Shown here: positions 2,767-50,624 of the stretch, piece after piece
Layout of the letters: each line of letters begins with the position of its first letter
How positions within the stretch are numbered: position 1 is the first letter of the stretch
Assembly: GCA_900547155.1 (NCBI GenBank)
Contig: URFH01000009.1
Coordinates: forward strand, 1 to 64,000
DNA length: 64,000 nt
Direction of reading: 5' to 3'
Source: an uncultured bacterium
GTDB taxonomy: Bacteria; Cyanobacteriota; Vampirovibrionia; Gastranaerophilales; Gastranaerophilaceae
Notes under the pieces: generated by a model
Told to the model about the DNA's origin: nothing
The model's database searches: none
Seen by the model: the letters and a program-made list of their open reading frames with translations, nothing else
Program-made: the position numbers and the translations under genes

Positions 2767-2827
2767 TTTTGCCCTCTCAATTTATGGAATTTCAAAATAT
2801 CTGCTTCTCCTGAACCGGTTTCTTGCT

Positions 2828-2946
2828 GTCATCCTGAACTTGTTTCAGGGTCGCAAGGTTTTTTGCCGGATTTTCTTTATCTGGCGATTCCGAAACGAGT
2901 TCGGAATGACGATTTCATACTGTCACCCTGAACTTGTTTCAGGGTC
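2828..2946. repeat. Cluster of three GTCA-type palindromes
   Basis: Three 25-base palindromes lie at 2828-2852, 2886-2910 (opposite orientation) and 2922-2946 between kdsD and miaB. All share the core GAACTTGTTTC or its complement, but the stem differs: CCTGAA in the outer two and ATTCCGAA in the middle one. The rest of the 303-base gap holds the miaB leader and no gene. Confidence 0.85.
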
Positions 2947-3069
2947 TAAAGCGTTTGAAACGCCTGTATGTCCTTGTTCAAATATATTATACGATGGGCG
3001 CGGAGAAAATTGCAATTAACAGCTTATTTTTTAGTTATAATTGTTAAGGAAGTCAAAAAACAGGTAAAT

Positions 3070-4389: not shown

Positions 4390-4430
4390 AGATTCCAGGG
4401 TAAAAAAGTGCATATCTACACAAATCCGGC

Positions 4431-4584
4431 GATTCCGAAACAAGTTCGGAATGACGGCTTCTTTCTGTCACCCTGAACTTGGTTCAGGGTCGCAAGGTTT
4501 TGGCACATCGACTTCAAGCCGGCGATTCCGAAACGAGTTCGGAATGACGGCTTTTTTCTGTCACCCTGAACTTGGTTCAGGGTC
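4431..4584. repeat. Cluster of four GTCA-type palindromes
   Basis: Two palindrome types alternate: ATTCCGAA-stem copies at 4431-4455 and 4524-4548 and CCCTGAAC-stem copies at 4467-4491 and 4560-4584. Spacer sequence between pairs is also partly repeated, so this looks like a duplicated two-palindrome unit. It occupies most of the 327-base miaB-glk gap; the remainder is the glk leader. Confidence 0.85.
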
Positions 4585-4716
4585 TAATAATCGAAAAAAC
4601 AGCTTTAATCCTTAAAAAGCTTACCTTGCCCGCAGCAAAATAAACTATGAATCACATACTCATTAAAAACCATGATATAATCTTGAAAAAAGGACATAAC
4701 CCGAACGGAGAAATAT

Positions 4717-5697
4717 ATGCCCAATTATGCTATCGGAATTGATTTAGGCGGAACAAAGATTTTAACCGGACTTGTTGATAAAGAAACCGGAAAAGTAGAA
4801 TATTTTACAAAACACAAAACCCGCGCAGAAAACGGAGCGGATTATGTAATTAACAAAATTATCCAGTCAATAAATGAGCTGCTTGAGGCGACAAAGCTGG
4901 ATATCCACCAAATCAGCTCAATCGGCATTGGCGCCCCCGGGCAGGTTAACCGTGAAAAGGGGATTTTAATCAACGCACCGAACCTGAATTGCTCAAACAT
5001 AAACCTCAAAGCCATTCTTGAACGCCAGTTTTTTATTCCAACGTTTTTGGGCAACGATGTGGGGATTGCAACGGTCGGAGAAATGAAATTCGGTTCCGGA
5101 GTGGGATTTAACAATATTGTTTGCGTTTTTGTCGGAACAGGAATCGGCTCCGGCATTGCAAAAGACGGAAAAATTTACTATGGTTCATCGGGAACAGCAG
5201 GCGAAATCGGGCATATTATCGTTGACGCAGGCGGAAGACCCTGCGGTTGCGGCGGAAACGGCTGTCTTGAAGCTTACGCATCGCGAACGGCAATTGAACA
5301 CAGAATCACAGGTGCGCTGAAAAAGGGCAGAGAATCCGTTATAACAGAGCTTTTAAAAGACGGAAAAAGAATCAGCTCAAAAGTGCTGAAAAAAGCGCTC
5401 GAGCTTGGCGACGAATTAGTAACGCAGACGCTTTTTGAGGCATCTGATTATCTTTCTAACGGGCTTGCGACGGTTATTAACTTTTACAATCCCGAAATAA
5501 TCATCCTCGGCGGCGGTCTTATTGACGCAATTGACGAATTTTACGAAAGAACAACCAAAAAAGCCCGCTCCAAAGCCCTCCCGATACCGGCCAGGACAAT
5601 TGAGTTCAAAAAAGCCAAGCTGGGCGATTTTTCAGGAGTTATCGGGGCTTGTTTTCTTGAAGATTTAGCAAAATTATCTGCGGGCAAAGAAAAGTAG
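4717..5697 (+). CDS. glk: ROK-family glucokinase
   Basis: This 326-residue cytoplasmic sugar kinase most likely phosphorylates glucose with ATP to feed glycolysis. The ATP phosphate-binding GIDLGGTK motif is at residues 7-14 and a catalytic Asp in GND is at about 114. The ROK zinc site is seen as H166 in EIGH and C176/C178/C183 in CGCGGNGC, followed by LEAYAS. A GGAG ribosome site precedes the ATG. Sugar specificity among ROK kinases (glucose, fructose, N-acetyl sugars) cannot be decided from sequence. The 3' end abuts the first family A element, whose left arm overlaps the last codons. Confidence 0.88.
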   Translation: MPNYAIGIDLGGTKILTGLVDKETGKVEYFTKHKTRAENGADYVINKIIQSINELLEATKLDIHQISSIGIGAPGQVNREKGILINAPNLNCSNINLKAILERQFFIPTFLGNDVGIATVGEMKFGSGVGFNNIVCVFVGTGIGSGIAKDGKIYYGSSGTAGEIGHIIVDAGGRPCGCGGNGCLEAYASRTAIEHRITGALKKGRESVITELLKDGKRISSKVLKKALELGDELVTQTLFEASDYLSNGLATVINFYNPEIIILGGGLIDAIDEFYERTTKKARSKALPIPARTIEFKKAKLGDFSGVIGACFLEDLAKLSAGKEK

Positions 5698-5807
5698 ATT
5701 TTTTTCCTTGTTGTGACGATGGGGAGGCTGTTGTTGATGACAAAAATGCGTTTTCTTCGTTAAAAAGCCAGAGAAATCGGAACGGGGAATAGGGATATTT
5801 GCTTTTC
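5690..5807 (+). repeat. Family A element, copy A5 (degenerate)
   Basis: The conserved left core reads GTGACGATGGGGAGGCTG (5712-5729) and the right core AAATCGGAACGG (5774-5785). The outer arms (about 5690-5707 and 5790-5807) are only partly complementary, so this copy is decayed or was never perfect. The left arm overlaps the glk stop codon. Confidence 0.7.
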
Positions 5808-5839
5808 TCCGGTGATTTAACAAGTCGCTCCCCATCCCG

Positions 5840-5862
5840 GCCTTCCCCAAGTCGGGGAAGGA
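5840..5862. repeat. G/C-rich palindrome D1
   Basis: CTTCCCC and GGGGAAG arms enclose AAGTC. The same motif recurs as D2 (6046-6066), D3 (6249-6271, decayed) and D4 (35432-35452). Between convergent genes it could also weaken read-through, but it lacks a T tract. Confidence 0.7.
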
Positions 5863-5892
5863 GGTTTTCGGGTTATTTGCAGCTAAAATCAA

Positions 5893-6012
5893 GAAAAGCA
5901 GGTATTTCTCTTTGCAGTGACTATGGAGGAGGCTGCTATTGATTACAAAAGTGGGCTTTCTTCGTTGAATGGCCGGGGGAATCGGAACGGAAAAGAGGAA
6001 TAGCTGCTTTTC
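5893..6012 (+). repeat. Family A element, copy A3
   Basis: The left core AGTGACTATGGAGGAGGCTG (5916-5935) and right core GGCCGGGGGAATCGGAACGG (5971-5990) are enclosed by roughly 19-base arms. The arms pair except for one mismatch and one wobble. The next unit repeats the whole element at about 6098-6217 (A4). Confidence 0.85.
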
Positions 6013-6097
6013 CAGCGCGATTTAACATGTCGCTCCCCATCCCAGCCTTTCCCGAGTCGGGGAAGGAGGTTTTCGGGTTATTTGCAGCTAAAATCAA

Positions 6098-6217
6098 GAA
6101 AAGCAGGTATTTCTCTTTGCAGTGACTATGGAGGAGGCTGCTATTGATTACAAAAGTGGGCTTTCTTCGTTGAATGGCCGGGGGAATCGGAACGGAAAAG
6201 AGGAATAGCTGCTTTTC
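6098..6217 (+). repeat. Family A element, copy A4
   Basis: This is a near-exact duplicate of A3, 205 bases downstream, with the same arms and core. Its near-identity points to recent tandem duplication, in contrast with the unrelated arms of A1 and A2. Confidence 0.85.
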
Positions 6218-6282
6218 CAGCGCGATTTAACATGTCGCTCCCCATCCCAACTTTCCACAGGTCGGGGATGTAGGTTTTTAGG

Positions 6283-14439: not shown

Positions 14440-14482
14440 AAAAAAGGGCACGGGATTTAGAAAATACTCTTCATGCCGGTGA

Positions 14483-14601
14483 GATGCTGAAACAAGTTCA
14501 GCATGACAGATTGTTTTTTGTAACCCTGAACCCGTTTCAGGGTCGCAAGGGCGGTGTTAATCGACTTCAACCTTGCGATTCCGAATCAAGTTCGGAATGA
14601 C
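14483..14601. repeat. Cluster of three GTCA-type palindromes
   Basis: Copies lie at 14483-14507 (stem ATGCTGAA), 14520-14544 (ACCCTGAA, decayed) and 14577-14601 (ATTCCGAA). They fill the convergent gap between the GIY-YIG gene and a sensor kinase. Three different stems surround nearly the same core. Confidence 0.83.
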
Positions 14602-14643
14602 AGCTTGTTTTTCCCTGAAAAAGCCCGTTTTAAGCCTTAAACA

Positions 14644-17611: not shown

Positions 17612-18238
17612 GCGGTTTTGGGCTTGTATACAACTCTACACTAAATTTTCAATCACTCCCCATCTTGAAAGCCTAAAACTTACATTTTTGCACAATCTTG
17701 CGGTGGGAACCGTTGAACTTTTCCCACCCTACAACTCAACAACATTAAAATCGCTCCCCATCCGGCCACATTGTCACTCTGAACTCATTTCCGGGTCGCA
17801 AGGGCGGGGGAAATTAGCTCAAAATCTAAAGAATAGCTTTCACACTGGTGAGATGCTGAAACAAGTTCAGCATGACGGCTTGTTTGTTGTCACCCCAAAC
17901 TCGTTTGACCGCTTTTTCCAAAATCTTTGATTTTGTGAAAAATGTCTGGTTTCCCACAGGGTCGCAAGGGCGGTGCCTATCGACTTCAATCTGGCGATTC
18001 CGAATCAAGTTCGGAATGACAGCTTGTTTTTCGTCACCCTGAACTTGTTTCAGGGTCGCGAGGACGGGGGAAATTAGCTTAAATCTTAGAAAAAGGAGAT
18101 ACTGCCAGCTTTGTTCTTTTAACCCTTATTTTCTGCACAAATATTTATTAACCTTTCTTCCTAGCTTAAATGTCAACGCGCAAAGGCAATGTTTTTCTTT
18201 TGAAAACTGCCAAAATGGAAACATAAGGAAGTTGGAAA
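17612..18238. other. Repeat-filled intergenic region
   Basis: This 627-base stretch has no credible gene. It holds a GGTGGGAA/TTCCCACC hairpin near 17702-17729, two CGCTCCCCATC-type fragments (compare the units at 5.8-6.3 kb), a cluster of GTCA-type palindromes, and the leader of the next small gene with AAGGAAG at 18227. Confidence 0.7.
17773..18057. repeat. Cluster of five GTCA-type palindromes, one interrupted
   Basis: Copies lie at 17773-17797 (decayed), 17852-17876 (ATGCTGAA stem), about 17889-17962 (interrupted by some 50 bases of another hairpin), 17996-18020 (ATTCCGAA stem) and 18033-18057 (ACCCTGAA stem). Linking sequence such as GTCGCAAGGGCGG also recurs in other clusters. Confidence 0.8.
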
Positions 18239-19433: not shown

Positions 19434-19834
19434 AATCTCACCCGTTCCGTTTTACACTATCAAGTTAATCTGCTTTTGAAACGCACTCAATTCCACGGAA
19501 ATTTTAAACGCGCAAAAAAACATAGTCCTTTTTTATTAGCGGTAAGTACTATATTTAGCCTTATACCCGTTAGCAGCCGCTATTTCGGCCATACTCCCAA
19601 AGTATTATTTAAAAATTTTCCAATCTGAAAAATTTAACCAATTCAAAAAATAAGGAATTTATATAACTTTACGCCAAACAGAATAAAACTGTCTCCCTGA
19701 ACTTGTTTCAGGGTCGCAGGGGCGGGAAAATGTATTTAAATCTTAAAAAATTTCACGCTGGTGAGATGCTGAAACTAGTTCAGCATGACATTTTCGATTA
19801 ATTCTCGTGTAAACATTTGTGCTAAAATTTAGTC
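19434..19834. other. Intergenic region, 401 bases
   Basis: This is the gap between divergent genes, ending in ispG. It contains two GTCA-type palindromes in its right part. The left part has a possible short hairpin (GCAGCCG/CGGC near 19574-19588) but matches no riboswitch I can recognise on either strand. Confidence 0.5.
19691..19789. repeat. Pair of GTCA-type palindromes upstream of ispG
   Basis: A CCCTGAAC-stem copy at 19691-19715 and an ATGCTGAA-stem copy at 19765-19789 lie 45-140 bases before the ispG start, in the same arrangement as in the 14.5 and 17.8 kb clusters. Confidence 0.8.
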
Positions 19835-40979: not shown

Positions 40980-41060
40980 GTAAAAAGCAGAAATATTTAT
41001 TTTTCTAGCTCGATTCGCTGCACTCATAGGCGTCGAAAAATAAATATTTCTGCTTTTTAC
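40980..41060 (-). repeat. Family B element, copy B1
   Basis: A perfect 25-bp inverted repeat (40980-41004 with 41036-41060) encloses a 31-base loop (41005-41035). On the minus strand the loop starts CGACGCCTATGAG. The loop matches that of B2 at 26 of 31 positions, while the stems are unrelated. Confidence 0.9.
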
Positions 41061-41092
41061 GCATAAGCGCTAATCCGCCGCATTTTGGGTCA

Positions 41093-41212
41093 GGAGAAGA
41101 TAAATATCCTCTTTTCCGTTCCGATTCCTCCGGCTATTCATTGTTTTAAATGAATATCAAGGCTAATGAAGCCTCCTCCATAGTCACTACAAAGAGGATA
41201 TTTATCTTCTCC
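41093..41212 (-). repeat. Family A element, copy A1
   Basis: A perfect 21-bp inverted repeat (41093-41113 with 41192-41212) encloses a 78-base middle. Read on the minus strand the middle starts GTAGTGACTATGGAGGAGGC and ends GCCGGAGGAATCGGAACGGA, with a small variable hairpin (ATTCATT/AATGAAT) between. Confidence 0.9.
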
Positions 41213-41230
41213 TTTTGCGCATATTGCGAT

Positions 41231-44156: not shown

Positions 44157-44678
44157 TTATGCAGATTTTTGTTTTGCAACCGCGTCGATTGCTCTTACGA
44201 GGCTGCTCATTACAGCGTTCATTGCGCCTGCGATACCTGTTGCAGGTGAATTTACGCAGCCAAGCATTTTCGCATAAAGTTCTTCTCTTGACGGTGTTTT
44301 TGCAAGAGCTTCAACTTCGCTTGCATTCAGAAGCTGTCCGTCGAGTGCACCGGCAATGATTTCGCATTTTTTCTTGTCTTTGATGAATTTTGCGAGGACT
44401 TTAGCCGGAGAAACTTCGTCATTAAAGCCGAATGCTACCGCAGTAGATTCTTTCATGACGTCAGAGAGAACTTCGTATTGTGTTCCTTTGAACGCAATTT
44501 TAGCTAAGGTATTTTTTGTAACCGTATAGTCAGCACCTTCTTTTTGAAGAGCACGTCTGAGCTCGGTGATTTCGTCAACGCTCAAACCTTTATAGTTAGT
44601 TACAATAGCTACTTTAGCCTTTTCAACATTTTCTTTAATGTGATTGATTTTTTGTTCTTTAAAGGCTTTTGTTGCCAT
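44157..44678 (-). CDS. rplJ: 50S ribosomal protein L10
   Basis: This 173-residue protein anchors L7/L12 dimers to 23S rRNA. VAIVTNYKGLSVDEITELRR, YTVTKNTLAKIA and the C-terminal helix are typical. AAAGGAG precedes the ATG. The usual nusG-rplK-rplA neighbours are missing; here rplJL stand alone, divergent from rsgA, with a long leader. Confidence 0.97.
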   Translation of the reverse strand: MATKAFKEQKINHIKENVEKAKVAIVTNYKGLSVDEITELRRALQKEGADYTVTKNTLAKIAFKGTQYEVLSDVMKESTAVAFGFNDEVSPAKVLAKFIKDKKKCEIIAGALDGQLLNASEVEALAKTPSREELYAKMLGCVNSPATGIAGAMNAVMSSLVRAIDAVAKQKSA

Positions 44679-44799
44679 GGTTTGCTCCTTTGTGATTATT
44701 TATCGACCTGATTGATGTCAAATATTAAAAAATGACTTCGCGAAACCGCAAAATCATTACATCAATTTATAATATCGCCAAATGGCTGCTTATTCTTGA

Positions 44800-44985
44800 C
44801 TTTTATGATCCTCGATAGGCTTTTTCTTTTTAAGAGGAGGCTTTTTTATTATCTGCACCCGTTAACCATTCATCCAGCGGACTTTAGCTAACCAGGTCCT
44901 TAACGCCACCCGTTAACTATTCATCCAATGGACTTTAGTTAAACAAGCACTTAGGCCACCCCGCCTATTGTCTGCGGTTCAGTAA
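44800..44985 (-). promoter_or_regulatory. Candidate L10 leader with duplicated module
   Basis: The minus-strand leader of rplJ contains CCGCAGACAATAGGCGG (about 44964-44980), which resembles the AGAC...AGG part of ribosomal protein L10 leaders, followed by two roughly 50-base direct repeats. Each repeat reads AAAGTCC-x-TGGATGAAT-x-GTTAACGGGTG. L10 is known to repress its own operon through such leaders. Assignment is tentative. Confidence 0.5.
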
Positions 44986-45056
44986 TTAATTTATATAAAA
45001 CAAAGAAAATATGCAAGAAAATTGTTAAATTTTATTAAAGAAACGGAACACCCCAA

Positions 45057-45180
45057 GCAGATTAGGAGGATTTTACTTTGTAGTGACTATGGGGGAGGCT
45101 TCAAATATTAAGAAAAGTGGTCAATAATTGTTGCATAGCCGGAGGAATCGGAACGGAAAAGTAAAATCCTCCTAATCTGC
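45057..45180 (+). repeat. Family A element, copy A2
   Basis: A perfect 23-bp inverted repeat (45057-45079 with 45158-45180) encloses a 78-base middle that starts GTAGTGACTATGGGGGAGGC and ends GCCGGAGGAATCGGAACGGA. Stem sequence is unrelated to that of A1. A run of 11 C follows the right arm. Confidence 0.92.
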
Positions 45181-45245
45181 CCCCCCCCCCATCAATAATA
45201 TTTGCAGTATAATAAAATAAGTCAAAACAACAAACAAAAGGTTCA

Positions 45246-50419: not shown

Positions 50420-50444
50420 GCCGGTTGATGTTGTATTAAGCAGG

Positions 50445-50509
50445 TTTTAAGTATTTTTAGGAACCGGAACGGGCTTCGCCGCTTTTACGTTTCCTAAAAA
50501 TGCTTAAAA
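50445..50509. repeat. Element C, variable-stem type hairpin
   Basis: A 19-bp stem with one wobble (50445-50463 with 50491-50509) encloses a 27-base loop that begins CCGGAACGGGCTTCGCCGC. Only one copy is in the window. It lies just after the glycosyltransferase stop codon. Confidence 0.75.
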
Positions 50510-50543
50510 ACGGCCTAATGTTGGGGGATTTTTCGTTTTGGTT

Positions 50544-50624
50544 TACAAAGTCGGGAATGTTCATTTTTCGACGCCTATGAGCGCTGCAAATCAAGCTGGA
50601 AAAATGAATATTCTCAACTTTGTA
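50544..50624 (+). repeat. Family B element, copy B2
   Basis: Arms 50544-50568 and 50600-50624 pair over 25 positions with one mismatch and two wobbles. The 31-base loop (50569-50599) begins CGACGCCTATGAG and matches that of B1 at 26 positions, in an unrelated stem. Confidence 0.88.

What the first reader, a model, noticed from the sequence alone, without database searches (positions are those of the whole stretch)
41093..41212. Family A: conserved core inside a stem that differs in every locus
Copies A1 (41093-41212, minus) and A2 (45057-45180, plus) share both core halves (GTAGTGACTATGG.GGAGGC and GCCGGAGGAATCGGAACGGA) but have perfect 21-bp and 23-bp outer stems of unrelated sequence. The apical part also differs. 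Copies A3-A5 (5690-6217) keep the core with other stems. Conserved core plus unconserved but self-complementary arms suggests either a structured RNA under base-pair selection or a mobile element that builds an inverted copy of its target. I recognise no known family.
Basis: seen in the sequence. Interest (0 to 1): 0.8.

Follow-up and report, generated by a model that had tools for sequence, protein, structure and literature searches.

The report
Dispersed hairpins with conserved purine core
A gut bacterium related to cyanobacteria carries scattered hairpins of about 126 letters that share a purine-rich core and keep their two arms complementary even where the arm sequence differs, which points to an undescribed structured RNA or DNA-hairpin element.

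Summary
Family A is a hairpin of about 126 bp: 24-bp arm, core of about 78 nt, 24-bp arm. The window holds four full copies and one decayed copy. A Candidatus Gastranaerophilales MAG of a related species (79-89% identical over syntenic DNA) has 42 strong model matches. Seven of 286 genomes of the order have matches.

Pairing stops near 24 bp: 24 of 39 copies pair at position 24, 4 of 39 at position 25. In 31 aligned copies 27 of 36 pairs show two-sided changes. A sister family C has Watson-Crick pairs where A has tandem G.A pairs. The N of the left and right GGNGG is A/G or G/A in 30 of 31 rows.

A few unlinked copies have recognisably related arms. Comparison with empty sites gave no support for arms copied from the target. 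Selection on base pairing is therefore favoured over 'inverted target copy', which is not excluded.

Rfam has no match; no target duplication was seen; six of seven carriers lack a reverse transcriptase. RNA versus single-stranded DNA, the mobilising enzyme and the function remain unknown.

The parts
41091..41214 (-). Copy A1: hairpin element, arms 41191-41213 and 41092-41114 (23 bp, perfect), core between
   Evidence: 115.6 bits
45056..45181 (+). Copy A2: hairpin element, arms 45057-45079 and 45158-45180 (23 bp, perfect), core 45080-45157
   Evidence: 124.5 bits
5686..5810 (+). Copy A3: decayed copy with imperfect arms and core; overlaps the stop codon of the upstream ROK-family gene (4717-5697)
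   Evidence: (51.1 bits)
5890..6015 (+). Copy A4: hairpin element, first of two matching units of a 205-bp tandem repeat
   Evidence: 110.7 bits
6095..6220 (+). Copy A5: hairpin element, second unit of the tandem repeat
   Evidence: 110.7 bits

Best explanation
Family A is a non-autonomous dispersed element of Gastranaerophilales whose core strand folds into one rod. Read inward: a helix of about 24 bp with free sequence, a GNA/GGA internal loop, G-C and U-A, tandem G.A and A.G, C-G, U.C, A-U and U-A, a symmetric GGNGGA/GGNGGA internal loop, a stem of up to 5 bp and a poorly conserved apical loop. Shown by sequence: copy number, near-fixed geometry, covariation, exchange of inner modules between relatives, and presence or absence between two related species. 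Inferred: the purine-rich core is the recognition site of an unidentified trans-acting factor and the helix is a spacer of set length, so that in the arms pairing and length are selected while in the core the letters are. I think the folded form is more likely RNA (about 0.65) than one DNA strand. Selection more likely serves the element's own persistence or spread than the regulation of neighbours, because its orientation to neighbouring genes shows no clear preference.
For: Helix edge: 24 of 39 Watson-Crick at position 24, 4 of 39 at 25. Covariation score 0.615 against 0.153 shuffled and at most 0.192 slid, 27 of 36 pairs changed on both sides, 0 of 500 shuffles reaching any of five measures. 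23 double Watson-Crick changes against 2.9 simulated in eight pairs of copies with similar arms. Sister family C replaces the tandem G.A pairs by G-C and C-G in 4 of 4 copies examined. N/N' swap: A/G 16, G/A 14, A/A 1 of 31. G.T 54 against A.C 5 in 39 copies; 31 against 1 in 14 distinct arm pairs of other species. Unlinked copies with related arms: 6 of 351 pairs at score 10 or more against a shuffled mean of 1.2, maximum 4 in 100. Orientation to neighbours: same/same 10, convergent 11, divergent 13, both opposite 8 of 42 rows with two neighbours (my tally, array members counted singly).
Against: In 16 single-locus copies the G.T to A.C count at positions 8-21 is only 5 to 2, and 22 of the 54 G.T sit at positions 5 and 7; many of the rest are inherited within arrays. 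At positions 20-24 of all 39 copies A.C exceeds G.T, 23 to 8 (some arms have ended there). Complementary strands fold about as well. Column-wise, arms of 15 single copies are close to composition alone while apical columns are above it, which compensatory drift alone does not predict. No transcript, promoter or partner protein was found. In the printed copies I see no U-run after the helix.
Confidence: 0.6

Rival explanations
1. DNA-level palindrome correction: the core lets a replicating strand fold back and the polymerase copies one arm onto the other over about 24 nt, keeping the arms perfect without selection on an RNA.
For: Arms of single copies and of C copies are almost free of wobble: 213 Watson-Crick and 5 G.T at positions 8-21 of 16 copies, 87 and 1 of 88 cells in four C copies, against 243 and 31 in 14 arm pairs of other species. 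Changes between L021 and L044 come as a block.
Against: Related copies pass through G.T states. The sharp helix edge and the covariation inside the core, including the N/N' swap, are not explained by copying of arms.
Confidence: 0.2
2. The element inserts a core and builds one arm as an inverted copy of about 24 nt of its target.
For: Arms of most pairs of copies are no more alike than chance, while apical columns keep some likeness. All three window sites lack A in the related genome.
Against: None of six arm sequences matches the orthologous empty site beyond chance: 394 to 1650 of 2000 random stretches score as high. A few unlinked copies share arms.
Confidence: 0.1
3. A cis-acting element of messenger RNAs (terminator, stabiliser or leader) spread by duplication.
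For: Copies lie mostly between or at the edges of larger ORFs, for example A1 16 bp after a gene and A2 64 bp before one.
Against: All four orientations to neighbours occur at similar numbers, 10, 11, 13 and 8 of 42, and I see no U-run after the helix in the printed copies.
Confidence: 0.05

Closest known systems
Small bacterial MITE-like repeats: Correia/NEMIS, ERIC, RUP, RPE, YPAL (review PMC2229807, passages seen)
   Same: About 100-200 bp, dispersed, mostly intergenic, transcripts predicted to form long stem-loops, no transposase of their own
   Different: Those are described with terminal inverted repeats and, in most, target duplications. Here the arm sequence differs between most loci, no duplication was seen, and a non-canonical purine core sits in mid-stem
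REP elements with RAYT transposases (PMC3733652, abstract and outline seen)
   Same: Strand-specific dispersed hairpins in intergenic DNA
   Different: REPs are 20-40 bp; A copies are about 126 bp. The only Y1 transposase found in G001 lies by another palindrome beginning GTAG and is not near an A copy within its 3.3-kb locus
Stem-loop sequence families of Cozzuto et al. (PMC2267715, abstract and outline seen)
   Same: Repeat families with a shared predicted secondary structure, two thirds of them intergenic by its abstract
   Different: That survey covers 40 genomes; I did not test whether any of its 92 families matches this one
GNA/GGA and tandem sheared G.A internal loops (recalled, from no call)
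   Same: The core facing strands GNA/GGA, GA/GA and GGNGGA/GGNGGA have the letters of such purine motifs
   Different: No three-dimensional structure was tested here

Membership tests
MITE-like small mobile repeat | Many dispersed copies without coding capacity of their own | tested here: met
   48 model matches in G001, 42 at 93 bits or more (150 of 1632 candidates scored); four full copies in the window
MITE-like small mobile repeat | Terminal inverted repeat of shared sequence | tested here: not met
   Terminal arms pair but differ between most loci
MITE-like small mobile repeat | Target-site duplication | tested here: not met
   0 of 16 single copies with 2-5 matching bases at the called ends; up to 4 of 16 (2 bases) and 2 of 16 (3 or 4 bases) at the best of other offsets; one arm end, L012, was called too short
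MITE-like small mobile repeat | Presence or absence at orthologous sites | tested here: met
   A1, A2 and A3-A5 absent from the G001 orthologous regions
MITE-like small mobile repeat | Autonomous partner with the same ends | not tested
   No search was made for transposases other than PF01797 or for autonomous relatives with these ends
REP / RAYT | Y1 transposase gene beside the repeat | tested here: not met
   PF01797 in 3 of 7 carriers and 2 of 9 non-carriers; no R1 match at E 0.001 or below in the seven PF01797 loci
Element mobilised by a reverse transcriptase | Reverse transcriptase gene in carriers | tested here: not met
   PF00078 in 1 of 7 carriers and 4 of 9 non-carriers; the MAGs may be incomplete
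Known structured RNA (Rfam 15) | Match at the family's gathering score | tested here: not met
   Window: only L10_leader. A1/A2 region and ten G001 loci at permissive E-values: only sub-threshold matches besides L10_leader
Structured RNA | Covariation of paired columns | tested here: met
   a phylogeny-aware test such as R-scape was not available
Structured RNA | A transcript exists | not testable with these tools
   No RNA-seq is held

The most novel reading that the evidence does not exclude
A new class of structured RNA of Gastranaerophilales with a switchable non-canonical core (tandem G.A in A, Watson-Crick in C, and a GGNGGA/GGNGGA loop with an A/G swap) held at a set distance from the end of a sequence-free helix, read by a dedicated RNA-binding or RNA-mobilising protein that is not yet known.
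Probability: 0.2. Interest if true: 0.85.

Novelty: new variant of a known kind. Interest (0 to 1): 0.56.

Why it matters
In many dispersed bacterial palindromes the terminal sequence is shared, so selection on structure is hard to tell from passive copying. Here the helix sequence turns over while pairing, length and an internal purine core stay, which makes selection on structure measurable and gives a natural series of variants of a G.A / GGNGGA motif. It would also give a little-studied order of non-photosynthetic gut relatives of cyanobacteria a repeat system whose partner protein could be sought.

Tried and rejected
The window's own genome is not held. Viral contigs: 8 stretches, all judged by reading them to be chance matches without arms, and 0 for the short form. 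Phage records: no match for A2. Target copying: arm against empty site not significant. Target duplication: not seen. Reverse transcriptase and Y1 transposase as partner: not supported. Nearer relatives for clean empty sites: with the flanks of L022, the best match in 28 other genomes over more than 250 bases was 77% identical.

Two analyses were set aside. My first arm-relatedness test (32 of 496 pairs at score 10 or more against 1.5 expected) was inflated by the conserved inner ATTT and by copies that share flanks; I rely on the stricter repeat (6 of 351 against 1.2). Notebook entry 6 calls the first test decisive; that wording is too strong. Apical identities are inflated by loose gap costs and are not used.

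Papers: nine full-text searches, listings seen for all; passages of PMC2229807; abstract and outline of PMC2267715 and PMC3733652. In those listings I saw no description of such an element in Gastranaerophilales or Melainabacteria; subscription journals and preprints are not covered, and one search showed 15 of 467 papers.

Full report
WHAT IS THERE. The window carries four full copies and one decayed copy of a hairpin: A1 41091-41214 minus, A2 45056-45181 plus, A3 5686-5810, A4 5890-6015 and A5 6095-6220 plus. A pattern with both core halves was scanned over genome contigs (one genome for each of 84,980 species). All nine stretches found come from one MAG, Candidatus Gastranaerophilales bacterium E02__bin260, here called G001. 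It is related to the window organism: syntenic stretches are 79-89% identical. With a covariance model G001 has 48 matches: 42 at 93 bits or more, 2 at 77-78 and 4 at 42-49 (150 of 1632 candidates scored). The last four are uncertain, because the antisense strand of true copies alone reaches 39 bits.

ANATOMY. I parsed 40 copies, 36 from G001 and 4 from the window, identical copies taken once. The core is 75-79 nt in 39 of 40 and 78 nt in 25 of 40 (my tally). Leaving out decayed A3, pairs were counted position by position in 39 copies: positions 1-4 are Watson-Crick in all, position 24 in 24, position 25 in 4. Read inward, the core is GNA/GGA, G-C, U-A, tandem G.A and A.G, C-G, U.C, A-U, U-A, a symmetric GGNGGA/GGNGGA loop, then a stem of up to 5 bp whose pairs change between G-C, C-G and others. 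The two N positions are A/G in 16, G/A in 14, A/A in 1 (window A1) and G/G in 0 of 31 rows.

SISTER FAMILY. The orthologous intergenic region of A1 in G001 holds a different hairpin on the opposite strand. I examined four clear copies of this family C. They keep AUGGNGGAG...GGNGGAAUC but have GUGCU/AGCAC where A has GUGAC/GGAAC, so the tandem G.A pairs become G-C and C-G. Their arms run 23-25 bp outside that motif, G.U counted as pairs, with 87 of 88 cells Watson-Crick and 1 G.T. Both N/N' states occur in C too. In G113 the A-U/U-A step reads G.U/C-G (L136, read).

DISTRIBUTION. The exact two-half pattern is absent from 38 other relatives. The model finds matches in 7 of 286 genomes of the order (stricter filters, 12 candidates scored per listed genome). 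A wider look at those seven and three non-carriers gave matches in the same 7 of 10. In the other carriers the inner part is shorter or replaced while the outer GNAGUGAC...CGGAACGNA module or the C type remains. L139 (G008) and L144 (G165) share a downstream stretch and may be one locus. Their arms differ by compensatory changes while their inner modules are different (read). The orthology rests on that short stretch only: the all-against-all comparison did not list the pair.

WHY STRUCTURE IS SELECTED. On 31 aligned rows (27 A, 4 C) the structure has 87.2% of cells paired (shuffles 62.6), 27 of 36 pairs with two-sided change (shuffles 22.3) and a covariation score of 0.615 (shuffles 0.153, slid versions at most 0.192); 0 of 500 shuffles reach any of the five measures. 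Rows are related and the structure was drawn from them, so these are not probabilities. Eight pairs of copies with similar arms, each pair on different contigs, show 23 double Watson-Crick changes against 2.9 in a simulation that scatters the right-arm changes. The pairs were chosen for similarity, four sequences are used twice, and 9 of the 23 come from L021/L044, whose kinship is the least certain. Mismatches are polarised on the core strand: G.T 54 against A.C 5 in 39 copies, though 22 of the 54 sit at positions 5 and 7 and many are inherited within arrays; 31 against 1 in 14 distinct but related arm pairs of other species. Against this, 16 single-locus copies give only 5 against 2 at positions 8-21, with 213 Watson-Crick, and the complementary strands fold about as well.

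ARE ARMS COPIED FROM THE TARGET? Column by column, arms of 15 single copies are close to composition alone (0.31 against 0.31 and 0.30 against 0.30 on the left; 0.31 against 0.30 and 0.35 against 0.29 on the right), whereas apical columns are above it (0.45 against 0.33, 0.40 against 0.32). That favours new arms at each insertion. But local alignment of the outer 16 nt of 27 copies, one per array and per flank-sharing cluster, gives 6 of 351 pairs at score 10 or more against a shuffled mean of 1.2 (maximum 4 in 100), and 4 at 11 or more against 0.3 (maximum 2); at score 7 there is no excess beyond the shuffles (59, maximum 64). The clearest are L043/L044, window A2/L045, L021/L044 and L013/L040. 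So a few unlinked copies share arms and most pairs are at chance. At the three window sites G001 has no A copy, but these regions have turned over, and none of six arm sequences matches the empty site better than random G001 stretches (394 to 1650 of 2000 as good). The test is inconclusive rather than negative.

FUNCTION AND MOBILITY. Relative to the nearest ORFs of 80 aa or more, the copies stand in all four arrangements, 10, 11, 13 and 8 of 42 rows (my tally; 2 further rows had one neighbour only). 18 of 44 rows overlap such an ORF, most of them 81-131 aa long and not shown to be genes. Two overlap the 3' end of a gene with a Pfam match: A3 (ROK) and L039 (Sua5/YrdC). No target duplication is seen at the called ends. 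A reverse transcriptase is found in 1 of 7 carriers and 4 of 9 non-carriers, a Y1 transposase in 3 of 7 and 2 of 9; the G001 Y1 gene has a different palindrome beside it. The enzyme that moves the element is unknown. I infer a trans-acting factor that reads the purine core and a helix of set length; whether the folded molecule is RNA or one DNA strand is open.

NOVELTY. It works like the small bacterial stem-loop repeats reviewed in PMC2229807 (passages), but two features by which those are described, shared terminal repeats and target duplication, were tested and not met, and Rfam has no match. I call it a new variant of a known kind.

Noticed in passing
window 40980-41060 and 50544-50624; G001 loci L056, L057, L058, L059, L060, L061: Family B: another hairpin with a shared loop (near AGCTCGATTCGCTGCRCTCATAGGCGTCG) inside paired arms of about 26 bp in the window copy; arms are more alike between copies than in A. 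L198 of G179 has a similar loop.
   Followed up: partly
window about 50440-50520; L125 (G001 C109:1-7400): A further hairpin with a shared core (near GGGAACC..AAAAGCGGCGAAGCCCGTTC) in the same intergenic region of both species but in opposite orientation (by eye).
   Followed up: no
L191-L210 (G179, G008, G151, G271): Modules of 268-842 bp bounded by inverted copies of a 21-mer GATAATATNTATTATGTAAAA that resembles a dif (Xer) site, many carrying A-like or other hairpins; 10-54 such 21-mers per genome in five genomes and one in G001, at most one per strand for the reversed control. The regions were chosen because they held paired ends. Likeness to dif is recalled, not tested.
   Followed up: partly
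L166 (G001), L163 (G151), L180 (G165): A 21-mer with central TATATA lies in alignable flanks in three genomes and may be the true chromosomal dif site.
   Followed up: partly
L233 (G001 C80); flanks of L010, L015 and L018: A Y1 transposase gene with a REP-like palindrome GTAGGTCAGGC...GCCTGACCTAC beside it; similar palindromes flank some A arrays.
   Followed up: partly
window 2816-2956, 4410-4594, 14455-14637, 17773-18083, 19679-19819: Other short palindromic repeats of the type CCCTGAACTTGTTTCAGGG and GATTCCGAAACAAGTTCGGAATGAC.
   Followed up: no
window 44718-44995 (-): Ribosomal protein L10 leader (Rfam RF00557, 50.9 bits) upstream of the L10 gene at 44157-44678.
   Followed up: no
window 5686-5706: The left side of A3 contains the stop codon of the ROK-family gene, whose orthologue in G001 ends differently.
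   Followed up: partly
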